Shown: positions 13,036-48,780 of the stretch, piece after piece
Numbering within the stretch: position 1 is the first letter of the stretch
Layout: each line of letters opens with the position of its first letter
Program-made: the position numbers and the translations under genes
DNA from: Siphonodentalium dalli
Lineage: Eukaryota > Mollusca > Scaphopoda > Gadilida > Siphonodentaliidae
NCBI GenBank assembly: GCA_032622095.1
Contig: CP136062.1
Span: 9,947,710 to 10,011,709, forward strand
DNA length: 64,000 nt
Reading direction: 5' to 3'
Notes under the pieces: generated by a model
What the model was told of the DNA's origin: nothing
The model's input: the letters and a program-made list of their open reading frames with translations, nothing else
Databases searched by the model: none

Positions 13036-13039
13036 TCTA

Positions 13040-13476
13040 TCTCATATATATTTTGAAGACCTCTGTTTGTCTGTCTGTATGTTTGTATGTCATTTATACA
13101 AATCTACGATTCTCGACCGATCGGGACGAAACTTGGTACGTGTGTGTAGTTTGACCAGGCGGTCGTCGTTGTCATATTGGCGAGCCCGTGCGGCGCCCGC
13201 TTCGCGCATGCGCAGACGAGATCTCGGAAACGGGTGGAGCTATCGACTTGAAATTTGGTATGTGAATGTATCTTGCCCCGGATACAAATTTTATCGGGTC
13301 GCCGAGCCCGTGCGACGCCAGCTTCGCGCATGCGCAGACCAGATCTCGGGAACAGGGTAGAGCTATCGACTTGAAATTTGGTTTTTGAATAGCCTGGACA
13401 ACGTCGGGCTGGGTAGAGCTATCGACTTGAAATTTGGTTTTTGAATAGCCCGGACAACGTCGGGCTCATCGGCTAG
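13040..13476 (+). mobile_element. Non-autonomous Helitron, copy 1 of 3 in tandem
   Basis: Begins TCTCATATATATTTTGAAG immediately after an A and ends with hairpin AGCCCGGACAACGTCGGGCT, six bases, then CTAG. These are canonical Helitron ends: 5' TC and 3' CTRR with a short hairpin just upstream. The body holds 122-bp subrepeats containing GAGCTATCGACTTGAAATT and CGCGCATGCGCA. The terminal hairpin block is itself duplicated at about 13380-13465. Confidence 0.85.
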
Positions 13477-13903
13477 TCTCATATATATTTTGAAGACCTC
13501 TGTATGTTTGTCTGTCTGTATGTCTGTCATTTATACAAATCTACGATTCTCGACCGATCGGGATGAAACTTGGTACGTGTGTGTAGTTTGACCAGGCGGT
13601 CGTATTGGCGAGCCCGTGCGGCGCCCGCTTCGCGCATGCGCAGACGAGATCGCGGAAACGGGTGGAGCTATCGACTTGAAATTTGGTATGTGAATGTATC
13701 TTGCCCCGGATACAAATTTTATCGGGTCGCCGAGCCCGTGCGACGCCAGCTTCACGCATGCGCAGACCAGATCTCGGAAACGGGTAGAGCTATCGACTTG
13801 AAATTTGGTTTTTGAATAGCCCGGACAACGTCGGGCTGGGTAGAGCTATCGACTTGAAATTTGGTTTTTGAATAGCCCAGACAACGTCGGGCTCATCGGC
13901 TAG
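13477..13903 (+). mobile_element. Non-autonomous Helitron, copy 2 of 3 in tandem
   Basis: Joined directly to copy 1 at CTAG|TCTC, with no intervening base. Same 5' sequence, same body and same hairpin-CTAG end. Length 427 bp. Confidence 0.85.
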
Positions 13904-14645
13904 TCTCATATATATTTTGAAGACCTCTGTATGTTTGTCTGTCTGTATGTCTGTCATTTATACAAATCTACGATTCTCGACAAATCTACGATTCTACGAA
14001 ACTTTGTACGTGTGTGTAGTTTGACCAGGCGGTCGTATTGGTGAGCCCGTGCGGCGCCCGCTTCGCGCATGCGCAGACGAGATCACGGAAACGGGTGGAG
14101 CTATGGACTTGAAATTTGGTATGTGAATGTATCTTGCCCCGGATTCAAATTTTATCGGGTCGCCGAGCCTGTGATACGGAGCTTCGCGCATGCGCAGACG
14201 AGATCTCGGAAACGGGTGGAGCTATCGACTTGAAATTTGGTATGTGAATGTATCTTGCCCCGGATACGAATTTTTTCGGGTCGCCGATCCCGTGCGACGC
14301 CAGCTTCGCGCATACGCAGACGATATCTCGAAAACGGGTGGAGCTATGGACTTGAAATTTGGTATGTGAATGTATCTTGCCCCGGATACAAATTTTATCG
14401 GGTCGCCGAGCCCGTGCGACGCCAGCTTCGCGCATGCGCAGACGAGATCTCGGAAACGGGTGGAGCTATCGACTTGAAATTTGGTATGTGAATATATCTT
14501 GCCCCGGATACGAATTTTATCGGGTCGCCGAGCCCGTGCGACGCCAGCTTCGCGCATGCGCAGACCAGATCTCGGAAACGTGTGGAGCTATCGACTTGAA
14601 ATTTGGTTTTTGAATAGCCTGGACAACGTCGGGCTCATCGGCTAG
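13904..14645 (+). mobile_element. Non-autonomous Helitron, copy 3, with expanded 122-bp subrepeats
   Basis: Joined to copy 2 at CTAG|TCTC and ending in CTAG followed by T, so the whole trio sits between A and T, the Helitron target. The 122-bp internal unit is amplified to about five copies (starts near 14096, 14218, 14340, 14462 and 14584), making this copy 742 bp. After CTAG, the sequence ACTATATATTTTGAGACTTC looks like a diverged start of a related element. Short ORFs repeated here on both strands are a by-product of the repeat. Confidence 0.85.
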
Positions 14646-14659
14646 TACTATATATTTTG

Positions 14660-15470
14660 AGACTTCCGTATATATATGTGTACTTCATAGAATCCAAAAC
14701 GGCTGGCTCGATTGAGTTCAAACTTCCCATCTAAATGTAAAAACCCACGAAATTACAATTAGGCTCCATTCTTTCAACGAACCGTTGTGCACAGAATGTA
14801 ATTAATAACCACCCCACGAAATAAGCCTGCGAATCGGTCAGTTTAATTTCAAATCGAATCAGCCAAATGATTCCGAATCGCCTCAAATCGAATAATTGTA
14901 ATAGTGAAGATCAAAATAATACATGACTCAGAGGCCGTAACAATATCAATTTGCTCATTTCATAACGACGATAAATGTTTGTCAGTATACATTGTAAATA
15001 TTATCTATAAATGAATCAAATGCATGTCTAACCAATTAATTACGTATTCTTTGTGGGCGTCTCTGATACAATAATAAAACAGTATCAGAAGCAATATTGA
15101 AGCCAGAATGAAATCTTGTTTGACATATATATAACATTTTGCAGGGTCAGTTACATGAGTCTTGCAATGCTTCGGTGGTCTACATGTAGCTCAGTCGATG
15201 GCAATGTTATTTGTATGCGGTTGGTATCATAATATATCTTCGCAAAAAAGCAATTCGAAGTAATGAGAATGCAACTGGTGCCAATGATTCCATCCAATTC
15301 ATATCAGGACAGCCGATTTTGAATCCAATCAGATGAAAGATACCAAATCGCATCAATTCGCAGGGCCCTACACGGAGTGTAATTAATAATTATCCCATGA
15401 AATAAGCATTATGCACTGTGAATATATTATTTGATGGAAATCTATAAACGTATTTTGAAAAGAATTTTTT
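14660..15470. other. No gene recognised
   Basis: AT-rich spacer; no convincing ORF or array. Confidence 0.5.
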
Positions 15471-15481
15471 TTAAAGCCACA

Positions 15482-15615
15482 AATACACCCACAGACATCC
15501 ACAGACAATCGGGAGGTAACCTCACAACAGACATCCACAGACAATCGGGAGGTAACCTCACAACAGACATCTACAGACTGGCATCTCAGGCAATCGGGAG
15601 GTAACCTCACAAACG
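15482..15615. repeat. 36-bp minisatellite, about 3 copies
   Basis: The unit ACAGACATCCACAGACAATC followed by GGGAGGTAACCTCACA repeats; the third copy is interrupted by an extra 11-bp segment. Confidence 0.85.
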
Positions 15616-15676
15616 TAACGATATTAAAATATAGTCAGTATTAGAAACTATGAAATTCTAAAATTGATATTTCAAA

Positions 15677-15706
15677 TCTTATCTTATCTTATCTTATCTT
15701 ATCTTA
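15677..15706. repeat. TTATC pentanucleotide microsatellite
   Basis: Five to six uninterrupted TTATC units. Confidence 0.9.
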
Positions 15707-15877
15707 TATATCTATCCGGCCACATTGGTCAACCTCTTGTGAGTAAATCGTCATCACCACATCTACATATATATCTGAAATGTACTTTGAGAATTCAAAA
15801 CCGCCACCACACGTTGCATGTATATACAAACCACAGCTTTGTGTATTCCACCATCATGGTCACTGACAATAGGTAAC

Positions 15878-16267
15878 CAAGCCTGCAAATAGCGTGTGTG
15901 TCATTTGCAGAATGAGGTCCCCAGAGGGTGAATTTAGTGATGCTATCCCGCATAGCGGGCTAGCACCATCAAATTCACCCTCTGGAGACCTCATTCTGAT
16001 TAGGCCTCATCTTCTCGGAAGTATCTATAGTCTCAAATTAACATTGTTTTTAGTTACATTTTCCATTCTGGGAAGTTTCTATATCCCCTAATTTGCAGCA
16101 GATAAAATGCATAATCGAGGTGCCCAATGGGTGAACATCACCATTTTCAACTGGGGAACCACAATCTGACCCTAGGTCTACCATAGCAGTTGAGGGCCTA
16201 AGCAGAATGAGGTCCCCAGACTCTGGGGACCTCATTCTACAAATGACACACACTATTTACAGACTTG
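15878..16267. mobile_element. CAAGCC foldback MITE, long form, with 8-bp target duplication
   Basis: Flanked by the perfect direct repeat TAGGTAAC (15870-15877 and 16268-16275). Ends are CAAGCCTGCAAATAG and its inverted copy. Inside are nested palindromes GCAGAATGAGGTCCCCAGAG and inverse, and a spacer with CCCTAATTTGCAGCAGATAA. An 8-bp duplication points to hAT-type transposition. Confidence 0.88.
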
Positions 16268-16344
16268 TAGGTAACTCTACTACACCATCACCTGAAATGT
16301 CTATCAACTTACGCCCCAAAGGGAGGAATTTTGACAGGAAATTT

Positions 16345-16593
16345 ACTTTAATTTAGCCATTAACCCATGGATTGTTGCCCACGGTACGGTTCTTTAACGT
16401 GCACACAGCCATTTATGTCCCTACCCAATGGGATGGCGTGATCAAACCATTTTCGTACATGACACTGGGCGGGAGAGGATTATCGCTTAATGACACCTCA
16501 GCAAGGCATACGCAGTCGTGAATCGATCCGGGGTCCAACCAAAATTTCAGGCCAGTAGTTGAACATGCTAACCACTCGGCCATCGCAGCTCCC
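16345..16593 (-). mobile_element. tRNA-derived SINE
   Basis: On the minus strand the element starts GGGAGCTGCGATGG. It has a box A, TGGCCGAGTGG (16582-16572), and a box B, GATCGATTC (16528-16520), both matching the RNA polymerase III consensus and 43 nt apart. The head resembles a Ser/Leu-type tRNA. The tail contains GGGACATAAATGGCTG and TGCACGTTAAAGAACC, sequences common in invertebrate SINEs. It sits about 48 bp upstream of the exon-1 acceptor, in the opposite orientation to the gene. No tRNA cloverleaf survives, so it is not a tRNA gene. Confidence 0.75.
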
Positions 16594-16679
16594 AATCAAA
16601 CTACAATACAATACCATTATTAACACCCATTTCTTGTACAGATGCTGTAACTCTGAGGGTGATTAAGGGAGTGACTACA

Positions 16680-16851
16680 ATGGCTAAGACGTTTACAGTG
16701 ATCCACTTCAATGATGTATATAATATCGAGCCAGCAAAGGGAAGTAACTGCGGTGGATCAGCCAGGCTATCTGGATATATCAAGTCATGTAAAGCATACG
16801 GCTTGAATCCACTTGTTCTATTCAGCGGAGATGCATTCAACCCATCACTAC
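16680..16851 (+). CDS. Metallophosphatase exon 1 (first visible coding exon)
   Basis: Encodes residues 1-57, beginning MAKTFTVIHFNDVY, with metal-binding Asp12 in the first beta strand and Asp51 in FSGDAF. The exon itself probably starts at 16642, after an acceptor (TTCTTGTACAG ending at 16641). The reading frame stays open from 16642 to the ATG at 16680, so an upstream coding exon is not excluded. The ATG is preferred because family members usually start only a few residues before the first beta strand. The donor GTGAGT is at 16852 and the exon ends one base into codon 58 (57 codons plus 1). The second position of the usual D-x-H motif is Tyr14 here; DVY is, as far as I recall, typical of this subfamily rather than damage. 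Confidence 0.88.
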
Positions 16852-16874: not shown

Positions 16875-19800
16875 ACACTTCCATGATTCCTGCATGGAGC
16901 CCCATAAATATAGCCAGCTTGTATTGCTGAGTGCCATCTGCTCATGTCTGTGGTAGGCTCCATACGGGTAGTTTAACCCTTCCATGACTGGAGCTCCTGC
17001 ATGGAGCCCCATACATGTGGCCACCTTGTATTGCTGAGTGTCGTCTGCTCATGTCTGTGGGAGGCTCCATACGGGTAGTTTAACCCTCCCATGACTGGAG
17101 CTCCTGCATGGAGCCCCATACATGTGGCCACCTTGTATTACTGAGTGTCCCCTGCTCATGTCTGTGAGAGGCTCCATAAGGGTAGTTTAACCCTCCCATG
17201 ACTGGAGCTTCCTGCATGGAGCCCCATACATGTGGCCACCTTGTATTACTGAGTGTCGCCTGCTCATGTCTGTGAGAGGCTCCATAAGGGTAGTTTAACC
17301 CTCCCATGACTGGAGCTTCCTGCATGGAGCCCCATACATGTGGCCACCTTGTATTGCTGAGTGTCGCCTGCTCATGTCTGTGAGAGGCTCCATACGGGTA
17401 GTTTAACCCTCCCATGACTGGAGCTCCTGCATGGAGCCCCATACATGTGGCCACCTTGTATTACTGAGTGTCGTCTGCTCATGTCGTGAGGGGCTCCATA
17501 AGGGTAGTTTAACCCTTCCATGACTGGAGCTTCCTGTAGGGAGCCCCATACAGGTGGCAGCTTGTATTGCAGAGTGTCGTCTGCTCGTGTCTGTGTGAGG
17601 CTCCATAAGGGTAGTTTAACCCTTCCATGACTGGAGCTTCCTGCATGGAGCCCCATACATGTGGCCACCTTGTATTGCTGAGTGTCGCCTGCTCATGTCT
17701 GTGAGAGGCTCCATAAGGGTAGTTTAACCCTTCCATGACTGGAGCTTCCTGTAGGGAGCCCCATACAGGTGGCAGCTTGTATTGCTGAGTGTCGTCTGCT
17801 CGTGTCTGTGTGAGGCTCCATAAGGGTAGTTTAACCCTTCCATGACTGGAGCTTCCTGCATGGAGCCCCATACATGTGGCCACCTTGTATTGCTGAGTGT
17901 CGTCTGCTCATGTCTGTGAGGGGCTCCATACGGGTAGTTTAACCCTTCCATGATTGGAGCTTCCTGTAGGGAGCCCCATACCGGTGGCAGCTTGTATTGC
18001 TGAGTGTCGTCTGTTCATGTCTGTGAGGGGCTACATAAGGGTAGTTTAACCCTTCCATGACTGGAGCTCCTGCATGGAGCCCCTTACATGTGGCCACCTT
18101 GTATTGCTGAGTGTCGTCTGCTCGTATCTGTGTGAGGCTCCATAAGGGTAGTTTAACCCTTCCATGACTGGAGCTTCCTGTAGGGAGCCCCATACCGGTG
18201 GCAGCTTGTATTGCTGAGTGTCGTCTGTTCAAGTCTGTGGGAGGCTCCATACGGGTAGTTTAACCCTTCCATGACTGGAGCTTCCTGTAGGGAGCCCCAT
18301 ACAGGTGGCAGCTTGTATTGCTGAGTGTCGTCTGTTCATGTCTGTGGGAGGCTCCATACGGGTAGTTTAACCCTTCCATGACTGGAGCTTCCTGTAGGGA
18401 GCCCCATACAGGTGGCAGCTTGTATTGCTGAGTGTCGTCTGTTCATGTCTGTGGGAGGCTCCATAAGGGTAGTTTAACCCTTCCACGACTGGAGCTTCCT
18501 GCATGGAGCCCCTTACATGTGGCCACCTTGTATTGCTGAGTGTCGTCTGCTCATGTCTGTGGGAGGCTCCATAAGGGTAGTTTAACCCTTCCACGACTGG
18601 AGCTTCCTGTAGGGAGCCCCTTACATGTGGCCACCTTGTATTGCTGAGTGTCGTCTGCTCATGTCTGTGGGAGGCTCCATAAGGGTAGTTTAACCCTTCC
18701 ACGACTGGAGCTTCCTGTAGGGAGCCCCATACATGTGGCAGCTTGTATTGCCGAGTGTCGTCTGCTCGTGTCTGTGTGAGGCTCCATAAGGGTAGTTTAA
18801 CCCTTCCATGACTGGAGCTTCCTGTAGGGAGCCCCATACAGGTGGCAGCTTGTATTGCTGAGTGTCGTCTGTTCATGTCTGTGGGAGGCTCCATAAGGGT
18901 AGTTTAACCCTTCCATGACTGGAGCTTCCTGCATGGAGCCCCATACATGTGGCCACCTTGTATTACTGAGTGTCGTCTGCTCATGTCGGTGAGGGGCTCC
19001 ATAAGGTTAGTTTAACCCTTCCATGACTGGAGCTTCCTGCATGGAGCCCCTTACATGTGGCCACCTTGTATTGCTGAGTGTCGTCTGCTCGTGTCTGTGG
19101 GAGGCTCCATAAGAGTAGTTTAACCCTTCCATGCAAGAGCTTCCTGCATGGAGCCCCATACATGTGGCCACCTTGTATTGCTGAGTGTCGTTTGTTCATG
19201 TCTGTGGGAGGCTCCATAAGGGTAGTTTAACCCTTCCATGACTGGAGCTTCCTGTAGGGAGCCCCATACAGGTGGCAGCTTGTATTGCCGAGTGTCGTCT
19301 GCTCGTGTCTGTGTGAGGCTCCATACGGGTAGTTTAACCCTTCCATGACTGGAGCTTCCTGCATGGAGCCCCATACATGTGGCCACCTTGTATTGCTGAG
19401 TGTCGTCTGCTCATGTCTGTGAGGGGCTCCATAAGGGTAGTTTAACCCTCCCATGACTGGAGCTCCTGCATGGAGCCCCATACATGTGGCCACCTTGTAT
19501 TGCTGAGTGTCGTCTGCTCATGTCTGTGGGAGGCTCCATAAGGGTAGTTTAACCCTTCCACGACTGGAGCTTCCTGTAGGGAGCCCCTTACATGTGGCCA
19601 CCTTGTATTGCTGAGTGTCATCTGCTGTTGTCTGTGGGAGGCTCCATAAGGGTAGTTTAACCCTTCCATGACTGGAGCTTCCTGCATGGAGCCCCATACA
19701 TGTGGCCACCTTGTATTGCTGAGTGTCGTCTGCTCATGTCTGTGGGAGGCTCCATACGGGTAGTTTAACCCTTCTATGACAAGAGCTTCCTGCATGGAGC

Positions 19801-20348
19801 CCCATACATGTGGCCACCTTCTATTGCTGAGTGTCGTCTGCTCATGTCTGTGGGGGGCTCCATAAGAGTAGTTTAACCCTTCCATGCAAGAGCTTCCTGC
19901 ATGGAGCCCCATACATGTGGCCACCTTGTATTGCTGAGTGTCGTCTGCTCATGTCTGTGGTAGGCTCCATACGGGTAGTTTAACCCTTTCATGACTGGAG
20001 CTTCCTGCATAGAGCCCCTTACATGTGGCCACCTTGTATTGCTGAGTGTCGTCTGCTCATGTCTGTGGGAGGCTCCATAAGGGTAGTTTAACCCTTTCAT
20101 GACTAGAGCTTCCTGCATGGAGCCCCTTACATGTGGCCACCTTGTATTGTTGAGTGTCGTCTGCTCATGTCTGTGGTAGGCTCCATAAGGGTAGTTTAAC
20201 TTTTCCTTGACTAGATCTTCCTGCATGGAGCCCCATAAATATAACCAGCTTGTATTTCCGAGTGTCGTCTGGGAGGCTCCATAAGGGTAGTGTAACCCTT
20301 CCATGACTGGAGCTTCCTGCATGGAGCCCATAAATATAGCCACCTTGT
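16875..20348. repeat. 107-bp satellite array, about 32 units, in intron 1
   Basis: The unit contains TTTAACCCTTCCATGACTGG, GAGCTTCCTGCATGGAGCCC, TGTATTGCTGAGTGTCGTCT and GAGGCTCCATAAGGG. GGGTAGTTTAACCC recurs every 107-108 bp (for example 16966 and 17073). The array starts about 24 bp after the exon-1 donor. Variants (ATGGAGCC or AGGGAGCC; CATACATGTGGCCACC or CATACAGGTGGCAGC) alternate in blocks. Many spurious ORFs of 60-175 codons on the minus strand come from this repeat. Confidence 0.95.
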
Positions 20349-22170
20349 TAGCTCAACTTTACTTTGTAAAGTTTGAGCTATTGCCATGGCTTGGTATCCG
20401 TCGTCCGTGTGTACGTGTGTGTGTGCGTGTGTGATGCGTCAACAATTTCCTTTAGCACGGGCTACAGTTCGTACGTTTAGTCCGATTATTATGAAATTTG
20501 TCATGGATGTTGACATTGACATGTAGATGGGAACGAGTCATTTTGGGGTCATTCGGACAAAAAACATGGCCGCCAGCAGCCATCTTTGATTTTACTCTTT
20601 GTATGACTAAATCCTTTAGCACGGGCTACAGGTCGTACCTTTAGTCTGATCATCATGAACTTTGTCATGGCTGTTGAAATTGGAATGTAGATGGGAACGA
20701 GTCATTTTGGGGTCATTCGGACAAAAAACATGGCCGCCAGTGGCCATCTTGGATTTCAAAATTTAATCCATTAGCACGGGCCACAGGTCGTTCTGTTCGT
20801 CTGATCATCATGAAATTTGTCATGGATATTAATATTGACATGTAGATGGGAACGAGTAATTTTGGGGTCATTTGGCCAAAAAACATGGCCGCCAGCAGCC
20901 ATCTTGGATTTTACTCTTTGTATGACTAAATTCTTTAGCACGGGCTGCAGGTCGTACCTTTAGTCTGATCATCATAATATTTGTCAAGAATGTTAATAAT
21001 GACATGTAGATGGGAACGAGTCATTTTGGGGTCATTTGGCCAAAAAACATGGCCGCCAGCAGCCATCTTGGATTTTACTCTTTATATGACTAAATCCTTT
21101 AGCACGGGCTACAGGTCGTACCTTTAGTCTGATCATCATAAAATTTGTCATGGCTGTCGAAATTGGAATGTAGATGGGAACGAGTCATTTTGGGGTCATT
21201 CGGACAAAAAACATGGCCGCCAGCGGCCATCTTGGAATTAAAAATTTAATCCATTAGCACGGGCCACAGGTCGTACTGTTCGTCTGATCATCATGAAATT
21301 TGTTATGGATGATAATATTGACATGTAGATGGGAACGAGTCATTTTGGGGTCATTCGGCCTAAAAACATGGCCGCCAGTAGCCATCTTGGATTTTACTCT
21401 TTGTATGACTAAATCCTTTAGCACGGGCTGCAGGTTGTACCTTTAGTCTGATCATCATAAAATTTGTCATGGCTGTTGAAATTCGAATGTAAATGGGAAT
21501 GAGTCATTTTGGGGTCATTCGGACAAAAAACATGGCCGCCAGCAGCCATCTTGGATTTCAAAATTTAATCCATTAGCATGGGCCACAGGTCGTACTGTTC
21601 GTCTGATCATCATGAAATTTGTCATGGATGTTAATATTGACATGTAGATGGGAACGACTAATTTTGGGGTCATTTGACCAAAAAACATGGTCGATAGCAG
21701 CCATCTTGGATTTTACTCTTTGTATGACTAAATTCTTTAGCATGGGCTACATGTCTTACCTTTAGTCTAATCATCATAAAATTTGTCATGAATGTTAATA
21801 ATGATATGTAGATGGGAACGAGTCATTTTTGGGTCATTCGGCTAAAAAACATGGCCGCCAGCAGCCATCTTGGATTTTACTCTTTGTATGACTAAATTCT
21901 TTAGCATGGGCTACAGGGCGTACCTTTAGTCTGATCGTCATAAAATTTGTCATGGATGTTAACGATGACATGTAGATGGGAACGACTCATTTTGGGGTCA
22001 TTCGGCGGAAAATATGGCCGCCAGCAGCCATCTTGTATTTTACTTTTCTCTTCATGTCTATAAACTAGTATTAGATATTCAACTTTCCACATTCCTAATC
22101 GCTCCATTGACTGTAATACATTAAATTATTCCCTTTCCAAGTTGAGCTACAGTGTCATTGACACTTTCAA
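20349..22170 (+). mobile_element. Helentron-like element with ~164-bp tandem units, copy 1 (complete)
   Basis: Left end TTAGCTCAACTTTACTTTG forms a hairpin with GTAAAGTTTGAGCTA and is followed by a CCGTCGTCCGTGTG tract. Right end GTTGAGCTACAGTGTCATTG is followed by ACACTTTCA and contains the hairpin AGTGTCATTGACACT. Between them are about 11 units of ~164 bp (TTTAGCACGGGCTACAGGTC ... AACATGGCCGCCAGCAGCC). It sits inside a 107-bp satellite monomer whose halves flank it without duplication. This design fits non-autonomous Helentrons, which carry central tandem repeats. No transposase is encoded. Confidence 0.78.
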
Positions 22171-22212
22171 ATTACTGAGTGCCGTCTGCTCATGTCCATA
22201 AGTGTAGTTTAA
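22171..22212. repeat. Residual 107-bp satellite monomer
   Basis: ATTACTGAGTGCCGTCTGCT onward continues the satellite interrupted at 20348 and ends at the TTAA that begins the next element. Confidence 0.75.
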
Positions 22213-22499
22213 CCCTTCCAAGTAAGGAGCTTCCGGAAATTTTACGAAAACCCTGTGCCAATGCATTCTCTTATATATGCAAGTTGACCATATGTTGCCT
22301 CACATATATAAGAGAATGCATTAGCCTAACAAATTTTATATTATATTTTAATAATTGTTAAAGAATGTAAGAAACAATTATAAAAAAATTTATCAAAAAC
22401 TGTTAGGCCAATGCATTCCCTATGGTCAACTCGCATTTATAAGAGAATGCATTGGCACAGGGTTGCGTCAGAGCCAGCACATCTCCCGCCATGAAAGGG
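22213..22499. mobile_element. TTAA-flanked MITE with CCCTGTGCC palindromes
   Basis: Preceded by TTAA (22209-22212) and starting CCCTTCCAAGTAAGGAGCTT, the same start as the 107-bp satellite monomer. Inside are two inverted copies of the palindrome CCCTGTGCCAATGCATTCTC. It ends CATGAAAGGG followed by TTAT, a one-base change from TTAA. TTAA targets and CCC/GGG ends are typical of piggyBac-type elements. Confidence 0.7.
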
Positions 22500-22732
22500 T
22501 TATATAGCACTCCCTTATGGAGCCCCACACAGACTCAAGCAGACAACAGTCATCAGTGCATTGTTCTCTCTGTCTGGGGCTCCCTAAAGGGATGACAGGT
22601 GGAAGGACTGATTCCTATATACCACCCATAACTTCATTACAGGGGATAAAATACAGAGGATTTATGAAGTACTAACTCACTCAGATAACTTAACCCTTCT
22701 ACTGTAATTTCCAAAGTAATTGACCACTTAAC

Positions 22733-24258
22733 AGGTCGTACCATTAGTCTGATCATCATGAAATTTGTAATGGCTGTTGAAATTGGAATGTAGATGGGAA
22801 CGAGTCATTTTGGGGTCATTCGGACAAAAAACATGGCCGCCAGCGGCCATCTTTGATTTTACTCTTTGTATGACTAAATCCTTTAGCACGGACTACAGGT
22901 CATACCTTGAGTCTGATCATCATGAAATTTTTCATGGCTGTTGAAATTGGAATGTAGATGGGAACGAGTCATTTTGGGATCATTCGGACGAAAAATATGG
23001 CCGCCAGCAGCCATCTTGTATTTTACGGCCATCTTTGATTTATAAATTAAATCCATTAGCACGGGCTACAGGTCGTACTGTTCGTCTGATCATCATGAAA
23101 TTTGTCTTGGATGTTATTTTGGGGTCATTCGGCCATAAAACATGGCCGCCAGCAGCCATCTTGTATTTTACTCTTTGTATGACTAAATCCTTTAGCACGG
23201 GCTACAGGTCGTACCTTTAGTATGATCATCATAAAATTTGTCATGGATGTTAACAATGACATATGGATTGGAACGAGTCATTTTGGGGTCATTCGGCCAA
23301 AAAACATGGCCACCAGCAGCCATCTTGGATTTTACTCTTTGTATGACTAAATCATTTAGCACGGGCTACAGGTCGTACTTTTAGTCTGATCATCATAAAA
23401 TGGATGTTAACAATGACATGTAGATGGGAACGAGTCATTTTGGGGTCATTCGGCCAAAAAACATGGCAGCCATCTTGGATTTTACTCTTTGTATGACTAA
23501 ATTCTTTAGCACGGGCTACAGGTCGTACCTTTAGTGTGATCATCATAAAATTTGTCAGGGATGTTAATATTGACATGTAGATGGGAACGAGTCATTTTGG
23601 GGTCATTCGGCCATAAAACATGGCCACCAGCAGCCATCTTGGATTTTACTCTTTGTATGTCAAAATCCTTTAGCACGGGCTACAGGTCGTACCTTTAGTC
23701 TGATCATCATGAAATTTTTCATGGCTGTTGAAATTGGAATGTAGATGAGAAAGAGTCATTTTGGGGTCATTCGGACAAAAAACATGGCCGCCAACAGCCA
23801 TCTTGGATTTTACTCTTTGTATGACTAAATCCTTTAAGCTACAGGTCGTACCTTTAGTTTGATAATCATAAAATTTGTCATGGATGTTAATAATGACATG
23901 TAGATGGGAAACGGGTCATTTTGGGGTCATTCGGCCATAAAACATGGCCACCAGCAGCCATCTTTGATTTTACTCTTTGTATGACTAAATCCTTTAGCAC
24001 AGGCTACAGGTCGTACCTTTAGTCTGATCATCATGAAATTTTTCATGGCTGTTGAAATTGGAATGTTGATGGGAAAGAGTCATTTTGGGGTCATTCGGAC
24101 AAAAAACATGGCCGCCAGCTGCCATCTTGGATTTTCTCTGTGTATGACTGAATCCTTTACTGCTCATTTTTTACACTCCTTTTTAATCTCTATTCATTGC
24201 CAATCACAAAAAAATACCTTCTTTACAAAGTTGAGCTACAGTGTCATTGACACTTTCA
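22733..24258 (+). mobile_element. Helentron-like element, copy 2 (left-truncated)
   Basis: About nine ~164-bp units, beginning in mid-unit at ACAGGTCGTACCATTAGTC and closing with the full right end (TTTACAAAGTTGAGCTACAG, hairpin, ACTTTCA). Confidence 0.85.
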
Positions 24259-27820: not shown

Positions 27821-30800
27821 TTAGCTCAACTTTACTTTGTAAAGTTTGAGCTATTGCCATGGCTTGGTATCCGTCGTCCGTGTGTGCACGGGCTACAGGT
27901 CGTATCTTTAATCGGATCATTATAAAATTTGTCATAGCTCTTGACATTGACATGTAGATGGGAACGAGTCATTTTGGGGTCATTCGGACAAAAAACATGG
28001 CCGCCATCGGCCATCTTGGATTTCAAAATTCAATCCATTAGCACGGGCTACAGGCAGTACTGTTCGTCTGATCATCATGAAATTTGTCATGGATGTTAAT
28101 ATTGACATGTAGATGGGAACGAATAATTTTGGGGTCATTCGACCAAAAAACATGGCCGCCAGCAGCCATCTTGGATTTTACTCTTTGTATGACTAAATCC
28201 TTTAGCATGGGCTACAGATCGTACCTTTGATCGTATCATCATAACATTTGTCATGGTTGTTACCAATGACATGTAGATGGGAACGAGTAATTTTTGGGTC
28301 ATTCGGCCAAAAAACATGGCAGTCAGCAGCCATCTTGGATTTTACTCTATGTATGACTAAATCCTTTAGCACGGGCTACAGTTCGTACCTTTAGTCTGAT
28401 CATCATGAAATTTGTCATGGCTGTTGAAATTGGAATGTAGATGGGAACGAGTCATTTTTGGGTCAATCGGACAAAAAACATGGCCGCCAGCAGCCATCTT
28501 TGTTTTCAAAATTCAATCCATTAGCACGGGCCACAGGTCAAATTGTTCGTCTGATCATCATAAAATTCGTCATGGATGTTAATATTGACATGTAGATGGG
28601 AACGAGTAATTTTGGGTTCATTCGGCCCAAAAACATGGCCGCTAGCAGCCATCTTGGATTTTACTCTTTGTATGACTAAATCCTTTAGCACGGGCTACAG
28701 GTCGTACCTTTAGTCTGATCATCATAAAATTTGTCATGGATGTTAACAATGACATGTAGATAGGAACGAGTCATTTTTGGGTCATTCGGGCAAAAAACAT
28801 GGCCACCAGCAGCCATCTTGGATTTACTAATCCTTTAGCACGGGCTACAGGTCGTACCTTTAGTCTGATCATCATAAAATTTGAAATGGATGTTAACGAT
28901 GACATGTAGATGGGAACGAATTATTTTTGGGTCATTCGGCAAAAAACATGGCCGCCAGCAGCCATCTTGGATTTTACTCTTTATATGACTAAATCCCATT
29001 CCTTTAGCACGGGCTACAGGTCGTACCTTTAGTCTGATCATCATGAAATTTGTCATGGCTGTTGAAATTGGACTGTAGATGGGAACGAGTTATTTTGTGG
29101 TCATTCGGGCAAAAAACATGGCCGCCAGCAGCCATCTTGGATTTTACTCTTTGTATGACTAAATCCTTTAGCATGGGCTACAGGTCGTACCTTTAGTCTG
29201 ATCATCATGAAATTTTTCATGGCTGTTGAAATTGGAATGTAGATGGGAAAGAGTCATTTCGGGGTCATTCGGACAAAAAACATGGCCACCAGTGGCCATC
29301 TTTGTTTTAAAAATTCAATCCATTAGCACGGGCCACAGGTCAAATTGTTCGTCTGATCATCATGAAATTTGTCATGGATGTTAATATTGACATGTAGATG
29401 GGAACGAGTAATTTTGGGTTCATTTGGCCCAAAAACATGGCCGCCAGCAGCCATCTTGGATTTTACTCTTTGTATGACTAAATCCTTTAGCACGGGCTAC
29501 AGGTCGTACCTTTAGTCTGATCATCATAAAATTTGTCATGGATGTTAACAATGACATGTAGATGGGAACGAGTCATTTTTGGGTCATTCAGGAAAAAAAC
29601 ATGGCCGCCAGCAGCATATTGGGTTTTACTCTTTGTATGACTAAATCCTTTAGCAAGGGTTACAGGTCGTACCTTTAGTTTGATCATCATAAAATTTGTC
29701 ATGGATGTTAACAATGACATGTAGATGGGAAAGAGTTATTTTGTGGTCATTCGGGCAAAAAACATGGCCGCCAGCAGCCATCTTGGATTTTACTCTTTGT
29801 ATGACTAAATCCTTTAGCATGGGCTACAGGTCGTACCTTTAGTCTGATCATCATGAAATTTTTCATGGCTGTTGAAATTGGAATGTAGATGGGAAAGAGT
29901 CATTTCGGGGTCATTCGGACAAAAAACATGGCCACCAGTGGCCATCTTTGTTTTAAAAATTCAATCCATTAGCACGGGCCACAGGTCAAATTGTTCGTCT
30001 GATCATCATGAAATTTGTCATGGATGTTAATATTGACATGTAGATGGGAACGAGTAATTTTGGGTTCATTTGGCCCAAAAACATGGCCGCCAGCAGCCAT
30101 CTTGGATTTTACTCTTTGTATGACTAAATCCTTTAGCACGGGCTACAGGTCGTACCTTTAGTCTGATCATCATAAAATTTGTCATGGATGTTAACAATGA
30201 CATGTAGATGGGAACGAGTCATTTTTGGGTCATTCAGGAAAAAAACATGGCCGCCAGCAGCATATTGGGTTTTACTCTTTGTATGACTAAATCCTTTAGC
30301 ACGGGTTACAGGTCGTACCTTTAGTTTGATCATCATAAAATTTGTCATGGATGTTAACAATGACATGTAGATGGGAAAGAGTCATTTTGGGGTCATTAGG
30401 GCAAAAAACATGGCCGCCAGCAGCCATCTTGGATTTTACTCTTTGTATGACAAAATCCTTTAGTACGGGCTACAGGTCGTACCTTTATTCTGATCATCAT
30501 GAAATTTGTCATGGCTGTTGGAATTGGAATGTAGATGGGAACGAGTCATTTTGGGGTCATTCGGACAAAAAACATGGCCGCCAGTGGCCATCTTTGTTTT
30601 CAAAATTCAATCCATTAGCACGGGCCACAGGTCAAATTGTTCGTCTGATCATCATCAAATTCGTCATGGATGTTAATATTGACATGTAGATGGAAACGAG
30701 TAATTTTGGGTTCATTCGGCCCAAAAACATGGCCGCCAGCAGCCATCTTGGATTTTACTCTTTGTATGACTAAATCCTTTAGCACAGGCTACAGGTCGTA

Positions 30801-33245
30801 CCTTTAGTCTGATCATCATAAAATTTGTCATGGATGTTAACAATGACATGTAGATGGGAACAAGTCATTTTTTGGTCATTCGGGCAATAAACATGGCCAT
30901 CAGCAGCCATCTTGGGTTTTACTCTTTGTATGACTAAATCCTTTAGCACGGGCTACAGGTCGTACCTTTAGTCTGATCATCATAAAATTTGTCATGGATG
31001 TTGAAATTGGACTGTAGATGGGAACGAGTTATTTTGGGGTCATTCGGGCAAAAAACATGGCCGCCAGCAGCCATCTTGGATTTTACTCTTTGTATGACTA
31101 AATCCTATTCCTTTAGCACGGGCTACAGGTCGTACCTTTAGTCTGATCATCATGAAATTTGTCATGGCTGTTGAAATTGGACTGTAGATGGGAACGAGTT
31201 ATTTTGGGGTCATTCGGGCAAAAAACATGGCCGCCAGCAGCCATCTTGGATTTTACTCTTTGTATGACTAAATCCTATTCCTTTAGCACGGGCTACAGGT
31301 CGTACCTTTAGTCTGATCATCATGAAATTTGTCATGGCTGTTGAAATTGGAATGTAGATGGGAACGAGTCATTTTGGGGTCATTCGGACAAAAAACATGG
31401 CCGCCAGTGGCCATCTTTGTTTTCAAAATTCAATCCATTAGCACGGGCCACAGGTCAAATTGTTCGTCTGATCATCATCAAATTCGTCATGGATGTTAAT
31501 ATTGACATGTAGATGGAAACGAGTAATTTTGGGTTCATTCGGCCCAAAAACATGGCCGCCAGCAGCCATCTTGGATTTTACTCTTTGTATGACTAAATCC
31601 TTTAGCACAGGCTACAGGTCGTACCTTTAGTCTGATCATCATAAAATTTGTCATGGATGTTAACAATGACATGTAGATGGGAACAAGTCATTTTTTGGTC
31701 ATTCGGGCAATAAACATGGCCATCAGCAGCCATCTTGGGTTTTACTCTTTGTATGACTAAATCCTTTAGCACGGGCTACAGGTCGTACCTTTAGTCTGAT
31801 CATCATAAAATTTGTCATGGATGTTGAAATTGGACTGTAGATGGGAACGAGTTATTTTGGGGTCATTCGGGCAAAAAACATGGCCGCCAGCAGCCATCTT
31901 GGATTTTACTCTTTGTATGACTAAATCCTATTCCTTTAGCACGGGCTACAGGTCGTACCTTTAGTCTGATCATCATGAAATTTGTCATGGCTGTTGAAAT
32001 TGGACTGTAGATGGGAACGAGTTATTTTGGGGTCATTCGGGCAAAAAACATGGCCGCCAGCAGCCATCTTGGATTTTACTCTTTGTATGACTAAATCCTT
32101 TAGCATGGGCTACAGGTCGTACCTTTAGTCTGATCATCATGAAATTTTTCATGGCTGTTGAAATTGGAATGTAGATGGGAACGAGTCATTTTGGGGTCAT
32201 TCGGACAAAAAACATGGCCGCCAATGGCCATCTTTGTTTTAAAAATTCAATCCATTAGCACGGGCCACAGGTCAAATTGTTCGTCTGATCATCATGAAAT
32301 TCCTCATGGATGTTAATATTGACATATAGATGGGAACGAGTAATTTTGGGTTCATTCGGCCCAAAAACATGGCCGCCAGCAGCCATCTTGGATTTTACTC
32401 TTTGTATGACTAAATCCTTTAGCACGGGCTACAGGTCGTACCTTTAGTCTGTTCATCATAAAAATTGTCATGGATGTTAACAATGACATGTAGATGGGAA
32501 CGAGTCATTTTGGGGTCATTCGGCTGAAAAATATGGCCGTCAGCGGCCATCTTTGATTTCAAAATTCAATCAATTAGCACAGGCTACAGGTCGTACCTTT
32601 AGTCTGATCATCATAAAATTTGTCATGGATGTTAGCAATGATATGTAGTTGGGAACGAGTCATTTTGAGGTCATTCGGCCAAAAAACATGGCCGCCAGCA
32701 GCCATCTTGGATTTTACTCTTTGTATGACTAGATCCTTTAGCACAGGCTACAGGTCGTACTTTTAGTCTGATCATCATAAAATTTGTCAGGGATGTTAAT
32801 ATTGACATGTAGATGGGAACAAGTCATTTTGGGGTCATTCAGCCTTAAAACATGGCCATGCACCAACAGCCATCTTGGATTTTACTCTTTGTATGACTAA
32901 ATCCTTTAGCACGGGCTACAGGTCGTACCTTTAGTCTGATCATTATGAAATTTTTCATGGCTGTTGAAATTGGAATGTAGATGGGAAAGAGTCATTTTTG
33001 GGTCATTCGGACAAAAAGCATGGCCGCCAGCAGCCATCTTGAATTTTACTCTTTGTATGACTAAATCCTTTAGCACGGGCTACAGGTCATACCTTTAGTC
33101 TGATCATCATGAAATTTTTCATGGCTGTTGAAATTGGAATGTAGATGGGAAAGAGTCATTTTGGGGTCATTCAGACAAAAAACATGGCGCCAGCTGCCAT
33201 CTTGGATTTTACTCTGTGTATGACTATATCCTTTACTGCTCATTT
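27821..33245 (+). mobile_element. Helentron-like element, copy 3 (~33 units, right end missing)
   Basis: Full left end at 27821 (TTAGCTCAACTTTACTTTG). About 33 tandem ~164-bp units follow. The array stops at TGCTCATTT directly against the left end of copy 4. Internal segments of 646 bp (29487 region against 30133) and 823 bp (30601 against 31424) are nearly identical, showing recent block duplication. Confidence 0.85.
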
Positions 33246-36200
33246 TTAGCTCAACTTTACTTTGTAAAGTTTGAGCTATTGCCATGGCTTTGTCGTCCGT
33301 CGTCCGTGTGTGCGTGTGTGCGTGTGTACGTAACGCGTCAACAATAGAGGCTACAGGTCGTACCTTTGATCGGATCATTATGAAATTTGTCATAGCTGTT
33401 GACATCAACATTTGTACCGGAATGATTCATTTTGGGGTCATACGGAAAAAAAACATGGCCGCCAGCGGCCATCTTAGATTTCAAAGTTCAATCCATTAGC
33501 ACGGGCTACAGGCCTTACTGTTCGTCTGATCGTCATGAAATTTGTCATGGATGTTAATATTGACATGTAGATGGGAACGAGTAATTTTGGGGTCATTCGG
33601 CCAAAAAACATGGCCGCCAGCAGCCATCTTCGATTTTACTCTTTGCATGACTAAATCCTTTAGCACGGGCTACAGGTCGTACCTTTAGTCAGATCGTCAT
33701 AAAATTTGTCATGGATGTTAACAATGACATGTAGATGGGAACGAGTCATTTTTGGGTTATTCGGGCAAAAAACATGGCCGCCAGCAGCCATCTTGGATTT
33801 TACTCTTTGTATGACTAAATCCTTTAGCACGGGCTACAGGTCGTACCTTTAGTCTGATAATCATGAAATTTATCATGGCTGTTGAAATTGGAATGTAGAT
33901 GGGAACGAGTCATTTTGGGGTCATTCGGACAAAAAACATGGCCGCCAGTGGCCATCTTTGTTTTCAAAATTCAATCCATTAGCACGGGCCACAGGTCGCA
34001 CTGTTCGTCTGATCGTCATGAAATTTGTCATGGATGTTAATATTGACATGTAGATGGGAACGAGTAATTTTGGGGTCATTCGGCCCAAAAACATGTCCGC
34101 CAGCAGCCATCTTGGATTTTACTCTTTGTATGACTAAATTCTTTAGCACGGGCTACAGGTCGTACCTTTAGTCTGATCATCATCAAATTTGTCATGGATG
34201 TTAACAATGACATGTAGATTGGAACGAGTCATTTTGGGGTCAATCGGCCAAAAAACATGGCCGCCAGCAGCCGTCTTGGATTTTACTCTTTGCATGACTA
34301 AATCCTTTAGCACGGGCTACAGGTCCTACTTTTAGTCTGATCATCATAAAATTTGTCAAGAATGTTAATAATGACATGTAGATGGGAACGAGTCATTTTG
34401 GGGTCATTCGGCCAAAAAACATGGCCGTCAGCAGCCATCTTGGATTTTACTCTTTGTATGACTAAATCCTTTAGCACGGGCTACAGGTCGTACCTTTAGT
34501 CTGATCATTATAAAATTTGTCATGGCTGTTGATATTGGAATGTAGATGGGAACGAGTCATTTTGGGGTCATTCGGACAAAAAACATGGCCGCCAGCGGCC
34601 ATCTTGGATTTCAAAATTTAATCCATTAACACGGGCCACAGGTCGTACTGATTGTCTGATCATCATGAAATTTGTCATGGATGATAATATTTTCATGTAG
34701 ATGGGAACGAGTAATTTTGGGGTCAATCGGCCAAAAAACATGGTCGCCAGCAGCCATCTTGGATTTTACTCTTTGTATGACTAAATCCTTTAGCACGGGC
34801 TACAGGTTGTATCTTTAGTCTGATCATCATAATATTTTTCATAAATGTTAATAATGACATGTAGATGGGAACGAGTCATTTTGGGGTCATTCGGCCAAAA
34901 AAGATGGCCGCCAGCAGCCATCTTGGATTTTACTCTTTGTATGACTAAATCCTTTAGCACGGGCTACAGGTCGTACCTTTAGTGAGATCGTCATAAAATT
35001 TGTCATGGATGTTAACAATGACATGTAGATGGGAACGAGTCATTTTTGGGTTATTCGGGCAAAAAACATGGCCGCCAGCAGCCATCTTGGATTTTACTCT
35101 TTGTATGACTAAATCCTTTAGCACGGGCTACAGGTCGTACCTTTAGTCTGATAATCATGAAATTTATCATGGTTGTTGAAATTGGAATGTAGATGGGAAC
35201 GAGTCATTTTGGGGTCATTCGGACAAAAAACATGGCCGCCAGTGGCCATCTTTGTTTTCAAAATTCAATCCATTAGCACGGGCCACAGGTCGCACTGTTC
35301 GTCTGATCGTCATGAAATTTGTCATGGATGTTAATATTGACATGTAGATGGGAACGAGTAATTTTGGGGTCATTCGGCCGAAAAATATGGCCGCCAGCAG
35401 CCATCTTGGATTTTACTCTTTGTATGACTACATTCTTTAGCACGGGCTACAGGTGGTACCTTTAGTCTGATCATCATCAAATTTGTCATGGATGTTAACA
35501 ATGACATGTAGATTGGAACGAGTCATTTTGGGGTCAATCGGCCAAAAAACATGGCCGCCAGCAGCCGTCTTGGATTTTACTCTTTGCATGACTAAATCCT
35601 TTAGCACGGGCTACAGGTCCTACTTTTAGTCTGATCATCATAAAATTTGTCAAGAATGTTAATAATGACATGTAGATGGGAACGAGTCATTTTGGGGTCA
35701 TTCGGCCAAAAAACATGGCCGTCAGCAGCCATCTTGGATTTTACTCTTTGTATGACTAAATCCTTTAGCACGGGCTACAGGTCGTACCTTTAGTCTGATC
35801 ATTATAAAATTTGTCATGGCTGTTGATATTGGAATGTAGATGGGAACGAGTCATTTTGGGGTCATTCGGACAAAAAACATGGCCGCCAGCGGCCATCTTG
35901 GATTTCAAAATTTAATCCATTAGCACGGGCCACAGGTCGTACTGATTGTCTGATTATCATGAAATTTGTCATGGATGATAATATTTACATGTAGATGGGA
36001 ACGAGTAATTTTGGGGTCATTCGGCCAAAAAACATGGCCACCAGCAGCCATCTTAGATTTTACTCTTTGTATGACTAAATTCTTTATCACGGGCTGCAGG
36101 TCGTACCTTTAGTCTGATCATCATAAAATTTGTCATGGATGTTAACAATGACATGTAGATGGGAACGGGTAATTTTGGGGTCAATCGGCCAAAAAACATG

Positions 36201-37255
36201 GTCGCCAGCAGCCATCTTGGATTTTACTCTTTGTATGACTAAATCCTTTAGCATGGGCTACAGGTTGTATCTTTAGTCTGATCAGCATAAAATTTTTCAT
36301 GAATGTTAATAATGACATGTAGATGGGAACGAGTCATTTTGGGGTCATTTGGCCAAAAAAAGATGGCCGCCAGCAGTCATCTTGGATTTTACTCTTTGTA
36401 TGACTAAATCCTTTAGCACGGGCTACAGGTCATACCTTCAGTCTGATCATCATAAATTTTTCATGGCTGTTGAAATTGGAATGTAAATGGGAACGAGTCA
36501 TTTTGGGGTCATTCGGACAAAAAACATGGCCGCCAGCGGCCATCTTGGATTTCAAAATTTAATCCATTAGCACGGGCCACAGGTCGTACTATTCGTCTGA
36601 TCATCATGAAATTTGTCCTGGATGTTAATGTTGATATGTAGATGGGAACGAGTAATTTTGGGGTCATTTGGCGGAAAAAACGTGGCCGCCAGCAGCCATC
36701 TTGGATTTTACTCTTTGTATGACTAAATTCTTTAGCACGGGCTACAGGTCGTACCTTTAGTCTGATCATCATCAAATTTGTCATGGATGTTAACAATGAC
36801 ATGTAGATTGGAACAAGTGATTTTGGGGTCAATCGGCCAAAAAACATGGCCGCCAGCAGCCATCTTGGATTTTACTCTTTGTATGACTAAATTCTATAGC
36901 ATGGGCTACAGGTCGTACCTTTAGTCTGATCGTCATAAAATTTGTCATTGATGTTAACGATGACATGTAGATGGGAACGACTCATTTTGGGGTCATTCGG
37001 CCGAAAACATGGCCGCCAGCAGCCATCTTGGATTTTACTTTTCTCTTCATGTCTATAAACTAGTATTAGACATTCAACTTTCCACATTCCTAATCGCTCC
37101 ATTGACTGTAATATATTAAATTATTCCGTTTCCAAGTTGAGCTACAGTGTCATTGACACTTTCATTTACACTCCCTTTTAATGTCTCTATTCATTGCTCA
37201 TTACAAAAAATTACCTTCTTTACAAAGTTGAGCTACAGTGTCATTGACACTTTCA
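33246..37255 (+). mobile_element. Helentron-like element, copy 4 (~24 units, double right end)
   Basis: Left end at 33246. A ~1.29-kb block (eight units) is duplicated, for example 33721 against 35015. The right terminus AGTGTCATTGACACTTTCA occurs twice, ending at 37164 and 37255, about 91 bp apart. Confidence 0.85.
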
Positions 37256-41585: not shown

Positions 41586-41839
41586 CAAGCCTTGAAATAG
41601 TGTGTCTGTCATTTGCAGAATGAGGTCCCCAGAGGGTGAATTTAGTGATGCTACCCCGCATAGTGGGCTAGCATCACCAAATTCACCCTTTGGTGACCTC
41701 ATTCTGCTTACACCTCAGCAGAATGAGGTTCCCAGAGGGTGAATTTGGTTATGCTAGCCCGCTATGCGGGGTAGCATAACTAAATTCACCCTCTGGGGAC
41801 CTCATTCTGCAAATGACAGACACCCTATTTCAAGGCTTG
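41586..41839. mobile_element. CAAGCC foldback MITE, 254 bp, 8-bp target duplication
   Basis: Target duplication GAGATAAA at 41578-41585 and 41840-41847. Ends CAAGCCTTGAAATAGTGTGT and its inverse. The element is palindromic along almost its whole length, and each half contains a smaller palindrome (GAATGAGGTCCCCAGAGGGT ... inverse). Confidence 0.92.
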
Positions 41840-42081: not shown

Positions 42082-42335
42082 CAAGCCTTGAAATAGGGTG
42101 CCTGTCATTTGCAGAATGAGGTCCCCAGAGGGTGAATTTAGTGATGCTACCCCGCATAGTGGGCTAGCATCACCAAATTCACCCTTTGGTGACCTCATTC
42201 TGCTTACACCTCAGCAGAATGAGGTTCCCAGAGGGTGAATTTGGTGATGATAGCCCGCTATGCGGGGTAGCATAACTGAATTCACCCTCTGGGGACCTCA
42301 TTCTGCAAATGACAGACACCCTATTTCAAGGCTTG
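42082..42335. mobile_element. CAAGCC foldback MITE, 254 bp, 8-bp target duplication
   Basis: Target duplication CATAGAAA at 42074-42081 and 42336-42343. Same length and structure as the copy at 41586, with a few substitutions. It lies about 170 bp upstream of exon 3. Confidence 0.92.
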
Positions 42336-48679: not shown

Positions 48680-48780
48680 TAGTCCAAGTCTTCTTGTACT
48701 AAAACCAGCTAAGATATTGGGATGGCGATGCTGGCCATCCCAATATCTTAGCTGGTTTTAGTACAAGAAGACTTGGACTA
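48680..48780. mobile_element. 101-bp perfect hairpin with 9-bp target duplication
   Basis: Arms of 47-48 nt pair without mismatch (TAGTCCAAGTCTTCTTGTAC ... inverse) around a 7-nt loop, GATGCTG (48727-48733). ATAGGCAGT flanks it directly at 48671-48679 and 48781-48789. A 9-bp duplication suggests a Mutator-type miniature element; the transcript would be a long perfect hairpin RNA. Confidence 0.85.

What the first reader, a model, noticed from the sequence alone, without database searches (positions are those of the whole stretch)
13040..14645. Three non-autonomous Helitrons joined head to tail with exact CTAG|TC junctions
The sequence shows TCTCATATA starts, hairpin-plus-CTAG ends, two junctions with no spacer base, and an A to the left and T to the right of the whole trio. 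Helitrons are known to start TC, end CTRR after a short hairpin, insert between A and T and sometimes form tandem arrays. The third copy expanded its inner 122-bp unit, so a tandem array exists inside a tandem array. This is a clean natural record of rolling-circle concatemer formation.
Basis: partly seen in the sequence, partly recalled or inferred. Interest (0 to 1): 0.72.

Follow-up and report, generated by a model that had tools for sequence, protein, structure and literature searches.

The report
Three jumping genes stacked head-to-tail
Three related copies of a short mobile DNA element of the Helitron kind sit end to end with no spacer, directly in front of what looks like the worn starting end of an older one, which suggests that such stacks can grow by new copies landing on the starting end of old ones rather than by one multi-copy jump.

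Summary
They are non-autonomous, repeat-bearing elements with canonical Helitron ends. "Clean record of one rolling-circle concatemer" is not supported. First, the right flank is probably not plain host DNA: TACTATATATTTTGAGACTTCCGTAT at 14646 resembles the element's own 29-base head (0 of 2000 shuffles; best match to that head outside the array). With the left flank joined on it reads A|TCTATACTATATATTTTG, a Helitron-type start (exact start inferred). So the trio seems to sit at an A|T inside the head of an older, diverged Helitron. Second, the copies are not equal sisters: copies 1 and 2 share a 56-bp duplication with the hairpin and a derived base that copy 3 lacks; copy 3 has five 122-bp-type units against two. 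Best reading: stepwise insertion at one A|T, possibly with a dimer or unequal exchange for copies 1-2. No genome was held and collection scans were empty, so other copies and an empty allele could not be checked. Spacerless Helitron tandems, and this very dispute, are in print.

The parts
13036..13039 (+). TCTA, inferred first four bases of the older resident Helitron head, cut off from the rest (14646 on) by the trio; A at 13035 would be its own target A
   Evidence: joined flanks read A|TCTATACTATATATTTTGAGAC, score 32 against 28 for the right flank alone; a 2-base offset also scores 32 and a 6-base offset 30, so the exact start is inference
13040..13476 (+). copy 1 of the non-autonomous Helitron (437 bp)
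13477..13903 (+). copy 2 (427 bp), joined CTAG|TC to copy 1
13904..14645 (+). copy 3 (742 bp), joined CTAG|TC to copy 2; five 122-bp-type units
13447..13466 (+). 3' hairpin of copy 1, ending 10 nt before the end
13874..13893 (+). 3' hairpin of copy 2, with a change in a CpG of the stem
14616..14635 (+). 3' hairpin of copy 3, with a change in a CpG of the stem; weaker fold
13355..13466 (+). 56-bp tandem duplication with hairpin, copy 1
13782..13893 (+). 56-bp tandem duplication with hairpin, copy 2; absent from copy 3
14043..14615 (+). 122-bp unit array of copy 3 (4.7 units by TRF, five unit starts); the three middle units look like last-unit-left / first-unit-right recombinants
14646..14745 (+). 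probable diverged head of an older resident Helitron (likeness significant only in about the first 25 bases); its 3' end was not found

Best explanation
The trio is three copies of one non-autonomous, repeat-bearing Helitron (head, GTCT/GTAT microsatellite, 122-bp tandem units, hairpin, CTAG), stacked stepwise at one A|T site. Shown: ends, junctions, a sequence like an older related head at the right edge, and two structural subtypes among the three copies. Inferred: an old Helitron stood here, starting A|TCTATACTATATATTTTG. A copy-3-type element then inserted at the A|T four bases inside its head. Because the flanking A and the first T of the newcomer make a fresh A|T backed by an AT-rich head, copies of the 56-bp-duplication subtype (copies 1 and 2, singly or as a dimer) inserted at the left edge. 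Each such step leaves CTAG|TC with no spacer.
For: Right flank matches the element head: 0 of 2000 shuffles for the local match, 1 of 5000 for the anchored one with copy 2; with the 29-base head as query it scores 31 against 24 for the best unrelated site outside the array (both strands), and the maxima of 20 simulated 64-kb windows (+ strand) are 22-28. Joining the flanks gives a TC start with A before it and raises the score from 28 to 32. Shared derived marks of copies 1-2: the 56-bp duplication and base 56 of the last unit (A in 2 of 9 units, both in copies 1-2, G in the other 7). Differences in the shared segments (about 371 bp; my tally of the columns, microsatellite columns 28-48 and patch 79-92 left out): 5 for copies 1-2, 9 for 1-3, 11 for 2-3. 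Private substitutions 1, 4, 7 from left to right, the order expected if the leftmost is newest (p = 0.105). The 20 bp right of the targets are 80% A+T against a window mean of 60%; Helraiser prefers AT-rich sequence, most on the side of the element's 3' end (PMC4778049, passage).
Against: With a 120-base query (head plus microsatellite) 4 of 1244 tiles outside the array score as well as or better than the right flank; they lie at 37.8 and 56.9 kb, where one search finds matches to the microsatellite stretch. The anchored score depends on the copy: 18, 27, 31 for copies 1, 2, 3 (only copy 2 shuffled). Beyond the first ~27 bases 211 of 5000 shuffles do as well. The 0 of 20000 shuffles for the joined flanks tests the match, not the join; the gain by joining is small and offsets of 2 and 4 bases tie. 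The left 20 bp are even more AT-rich (90%). The left-to-right trend is not significant and vanishes if indels and microsatellite changes count as events (copy 1 has a 9-bp and a 1-bp indel and its own microsatellite allele); tail base 4 is of open polarity, because copy 1's inner hairpin shares copy 3's T. No 3' end of the resident was found. No other genomic copies or empty alleles could be examined.
Confidence: 0.56

Rival explanations
1. One rolling-circle concatemer of three units inserted in a single event, and the copies diverged later through mutation, change of unit number and conversion between copies 1 and 2.
For: Exact CTAG|TC junctions are what circles or read-through give; Helraiser makes such joined ends (PMC4778049, PMC5876387, passages). 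All three copies belong to one close family (mismatches 2.6 to 4.5%).
Against: Needs later events to place the 56-bp duplication and the derived base in copies 1-2 only. Two of the three middle units of copy 3 carry 4 or more private changes in the compared core, as if already diverse on arrival; the third carries none.
Confidence: 0.21
2. Two adjacent Helitrons came first; the third copy arose by unequal crossing-over between them, so that copy 2 is copy-3-like on the left and copy-1-like on the right.
For: Copy 2 shares the microsatellite allele and the lack of 9 bp with copy 3 on the left, and the 56-bp duplication and base 56 with copy 1 on the right, the mosaic that such a crossover gives.
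Against: The left-side sharing can be ancestral, with copy 1 changed; by substitutions outside the microsatellite the left part of copy 2 is no closer to copy 3 than that of copy 1 is (columns). It does not explain the first junction.
Confidence: 0.19
3. An ordinary tandem duplication or satellite whose unit boundary happens to fall at TC/CTAG.
For: The window is full of tandem arrays, among them periods 107 and 164.
Against: Repeat boundary, hairpin ending 10 nt before it, flanking A and T, and a head-like right flank all fit Helitron ends.
Confidence: 0.04

Closest known systems
Spacerless head-to-tail Helitron pairs in maize (PMC2267711; section 8 read, other passages) and in the bat Myotis lucifugus (Pritham and Feschotte, as told there)
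   Same: TC of one element follows CTAG of the other directly; insertion at A plus the T of the resident head is one of the orders proposed for maize
   Different: Three copies here, of one family but two structural subtypes, plus what looks like the head of an older fourth element
Three Helitrons in tandem in Metarhizium acridum, and FoHeli4 2 bp upstream of a partial FoHeli4 (PMC5148889, passages)
   Same: Three copies; the authors leave insertion into a 5' end twice, or rolling circle, open
   Different: Fungal elements of the Helitron2/Helentron type; here TC/CTAG ends and A|T
Repeat-bearing Helitrons and Cg_HINE of the oyster Crassostrea gigas (PMC8268682, PMC7492417, passages)
   Same: Conserved end boxes, microsatellite, short array of satellite-like units
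   Different: HINEs have subterminal inverted repeats, not found here; no sequence comparison with oyster elements was possible
Rice Mothra Helitrons (PMC4683698, passages)
   Same: Non-autonomous Helitron with inner blocks of tandem repeats that vary between subtypes
   Different: 1252-2741 bp; no tandem stacking of whole elements appeared in the passages seen
Helraiser / Helibat1 (PMC4778049, PMC5876387, passages)
   Same: 5' TC, 3' CTAG, hairpin 11 nt from the end (here 10), A|T target, precise TC-CTAG joined ends in circles
   Different: Reconstructed autonomous element; the copies here are too short to code for a RepHel protein

Membership tests
canonical Helitron (non-autonomous) | 5' TC | tested here: met
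   3 of 3 copies
canonical Helitron (non-autonomous) | 3' CTRR | tested here: met
   CTAG in 3 of 3
canonical Helitron (non-autonomous) | hairpin about 10-12 nt before the 3' end | tested here: met
   Ends 10 nt before the end in 3 of 3; fold better than most shuffles in copies 1 and 2 (8 and 9 of 200 as good), not in copy 3 (58 of 200)
canonical Helitron (non-autonomous) | insertion between A and T without target duplication | tested here: met
   A 13039, T 14646 for the trio as a whole; flanks joined without extra bases give a head-like sequence; no real empty allele seen
canonical Helitron (non-autonomous) | no terminal inverted repeats | tested here: met
   Best first-80/last-80 inverted match reached by 789, 277 and 832 of 1000 shuffles
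canonical Helitron (non-autonomous) | dispersed copies with the same ends | not testable with these tools
   No genome held; no other copy in the window
canonical Helitron (non-autonomous) | autonomous RepHel partner with matching ends | not testable with these tools
   Genome not held; 10 of the 19 ORFs of 120 aa or more listed were scanned against Pfam, no RepHel match
Helentron / HINE | subterminal inverted repeats | tested here: not met
   (first 80 against last 80 bases)
Helentron / HINE | insertion between T and T (recalled) | tested here: not met
   A and T flank the trio
Helentron / HINE | central array of satellite-like repeats | tested here: met
   122-bp units; also found in elements annotated as Helitron in oyster (passages)
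single rolling-circle concatemer | copies identical at birth, hence no inherited marks shared by only two copies | tested here: inconclusive
   56-bp duplication and base 56 shared by copies 1 and 2 only speak against it; later conversion could mimic this
single rolling-circle concatemer | exact TC-CTAG junctions | tested here: met
   2 of 2; also expected from serial insertion

The most novel reading that the evidence does not exclude
Helitron heads act as self-made landing sites: A plus the element's leading T, backed by the AT-rich head, restores a preferred target at each insertion, so that arrays grow leftward one copy at a time with the newest on the left. This locus would record up to three such steps, the first into an older, diverged element.
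Probability: 0.33. Interest if true: 0.5.

Novelty: new member of a known kind. Interest (0 to 1): 0.32.

Why it matters
Head-to-tail junctions and tandem Helitron arrays are cited as support for rolling-circle transposition (PMC5876387, passage). If arrays like this one are built by serial insertion into resident heads, such junctions alone are not evidence for concatemers, and an older head in the flank plus subtype differences give a way to tell the two apart.

Tried and rejected
Other copies were sought by exact patterns: viral contigs and genome contigs, 0 matches in all 7 scans; one of the seven used the 164-bp satellite, not the element. Distant blastn of copy 2 against plasmids and of copy 3 against phages: no match. 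These collections are prokaryotic or viral, so the blanks say little about a eukaryote.

A 3' end for the resident fourth element: not found by perfect-hairpin scan (that strict scan found only 1 of the 3 trio ends, and 5 sites in all against 4-6 in 5 shuffles), by end pattern or by folding before each CTRR in 14700-16660 (best 8 shown, none taken as an end).

A mosaic copy 2 as proof of unequal crossing-over: undecided, since the left-side sharing is in fast-changing features. A relation between the 122-bp unit and the 164-bp or 107-bp satellites of the window: not established (one stretch of each, 11 and 61 of 300 shuffles as good for the 164-bp one on the two strands, 133 and 16 of 300 for the 107-bp one). 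Rfam at gathering threshold and tRNA scan of the window: nothing. A possible exon at 16680-16850: no Pfam match up to E 0.1 and no PDB match up to E 0.01. Paper searches on Helitron tandems and repeat-bearing Helitrons: (one found none, 50 found one). The wheat paper PMC13286980 (passages) speaks of tandem copies only as products of in-vitro amplification and of none in the genomic control.

Full report
Observation. The finding is exact. Copy 1 is 13040-13476 (437 bp), copy 2 13477-13903 (427 bp), copy 3 13904-14645 (742 bp); all begin TCTCATATATATTTTGAAGA and end GGGCTCATCGGCTAG, and both junctions are CTAG|TCTC. The bases outside are A (13039) and T (14646). The end pattern occurs nowhere else in the window with up to 3 mismatches (3 matches, all exact, all in the trio). 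A hairpin (AGCCCG...CGGGCT in copy 1) ends 10 nt before each end; 8, 9 and 58 of 200 shuffles fold as well for copies 1, 2 and 3, so it is weak in copy 3, where a stem CpG has changed. Hairpin plus CTRR plus T by itself is no rarer than chance in the window (5 sites, 4-6 in shuffles); what counts is that it falls on the repeat boundary.

Anatomy. Each copy has a head, a GTCT/GTAT microsatellite just behind it, then 122-bp-type units and a terminal hairpin with CATCGGCTAG. Copies 1 and 2 have two units plus a 56-bp duplication that repeats the hairpin; copy 3 has five units and no such duplication. In the compared core, first units differ from each other by 1-2 bases and last units by 2-3, while first and last units of one copy differ by 5-6, so this layout is older than the array. 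The three middle units of copy 3 carry the last-unit bases at positions 12 and 17 and the first-unit base at 37, as an unequal exchange between first and last unit would give; that copies 1 and 2 lost units is not excluded.

The right flank. The sequence from there, TACTATATATTTTGAGACTTCCGTAT, aligns with the element's own head with 2 mismatches and 1 gap over 24 columns (0 of 2000 shuffles, best shuffle 30 against 31; anchored with copy 2: 1 of 5000). With the 29-base head as query it is the best match outside the array: score 31, next unrelated site 24, maxima of 20 simulated 64-kb windows 22-28. Results against: with a 120-base query 4 of 1244 tiles elsewhere score 31-39 (at 37.8 and 56.9 kb, where one search shows matches to the microsatellite part); anchored scores for copies 1, 2 and 3 are 18, 27 and 31, and only copy 2 was tested by shuffles; beyond the first ~27 bases 211 of 5000 shuffles do as well. 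Joining the left flank gives A|TCTATACTATATATTTTGAGACTTCC, which has a TC start with an A before it and scores 32 against 28; none of 20000 shuffles and none of 2055 ATC sites outside (best 21) reach that. Those controls test the match more than the join: offsets of 2 and 4 bases tie at 32, and an offset of 6 gives 30. I read this as an older, diverged Helitron whose head was split by the trio at the A|T four bases in. No 3' end for it was found.

Relations among the copies. Whole-copy comparison gives 2.6% (1-2), 4.5% (2-3) and 4.5% (1-3) mismatches. On the segments all three share (about 371 bp), leaving out the microsatellite columns and one rearranged patch of copy 3, I count 5, 11 and 9 differences in the same order (my tally of the columns). 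Copies 1 and 2 share the 56-bp duplication and an A at base 56 of the last unit, where 7 of 9 units have G. Private substitutions are 1, 4 and 7 for copies 1, 2 and 3 (p = 0.105 against equal numbers); counting indels and microsatellite changes as events removes the trend. One of copy 3's seven (tail base 4) is of uncertain polarity. Middle units 2 and 3 of copy 3 have 4 or more private changes each in the core, middle unit 4 none.

Mechanism. Two known routes give spacerless junctions. In one, a rolling-circle concatemer or circle is inserted; Helraiser forms precise TC-CTAG joined ends (PMC4778049 and PMC5876387, passages). In the other, a new element inserts at the A|T formed by the flanking A and the T of a resident's head; PMC2267711 (authors Du et al., name recalled) sets out both and found its maize pair to be dissimilar elements inserted in succession, in an order left open (section 8; passages). 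A three-copy tandem in a fungus was left open between the two (PMC5148889, passages). Here the head-like right flank suggests that one step was insertion into a Helitron head, and the two subtypes within the trio speak against one birth. I favour stepwise insertion (0.56), with copies 1-2 perhaps a dimer; one concatemer 0.21; unequal exchange from a pair 0.19; chance tandem duplication 0.04.

Limits. The organism is unknown; a eukaryote is inferred from content (satellite-rich; no genome held). No other copies could be found: 7 pattern scans (one search used the 164-bp satellite) and 2 distant searches of viral, phage, plasmid and prokaryote collections were empty, as expected for such collections. 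Assembly error cannot be excluded without reads; the only run of N in the window is at 653-752.

Novelty. Helitron ends, A|T targeting, inner satellite-like arrays with a microsatellite (oyster, PMC8268682, passages) and spacerless tandems are all described. The locus is a well-preserved new case whose flank helps to choose between two published models.

Noticed in passing
56946-57710: A|TCTATATCTATATTTGCGAATGTCTGTCTGTC followed by a 286-bp tandem repeat: looks like another head-microsatellite-repeat element.
   Followed up: partly
15762-15860: A|TCTACATATATATCTG...: weakly like the resident head at 14646 (6 of 2000 shuffles as good).
   Followed up: partly
14790-14826 and 15371-15407: 37-bp direct repeat, 84% identical, in the region behind the resident head.
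   Followed up: no
20448-24160, 27886-37039, 43923-46092: Large arrays of one 164-bp satellite in several blocks; oyster CgiSat01a has the same length, no sequence compared.
   Followed up: no
16887-20348: 107-bp satellite array of about 32 units.
   Followed up: no
16680-16851: Possible first exon starting ATG and ending before GTGAGT, read by eye as like a 5'-nucleotidase family protein (recalled); Pfam and PDB searches of 16680-16850 gave no match.
   Followed up: partly
48705-48755: Perfect hairpin (12-bp stem, 7-nt loop) followed on both strands by the same ...ATCTTAGCTGGT, so a longer inverted repeat.
   Followed up: no
15878-16267, 41615-41810, 42111-42306: Inverted repeat with GCAGAATGAGGTCCCCAGAGGGTGAATTTAG, like a fold-back element, in several places of the window.
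   Followed up: no
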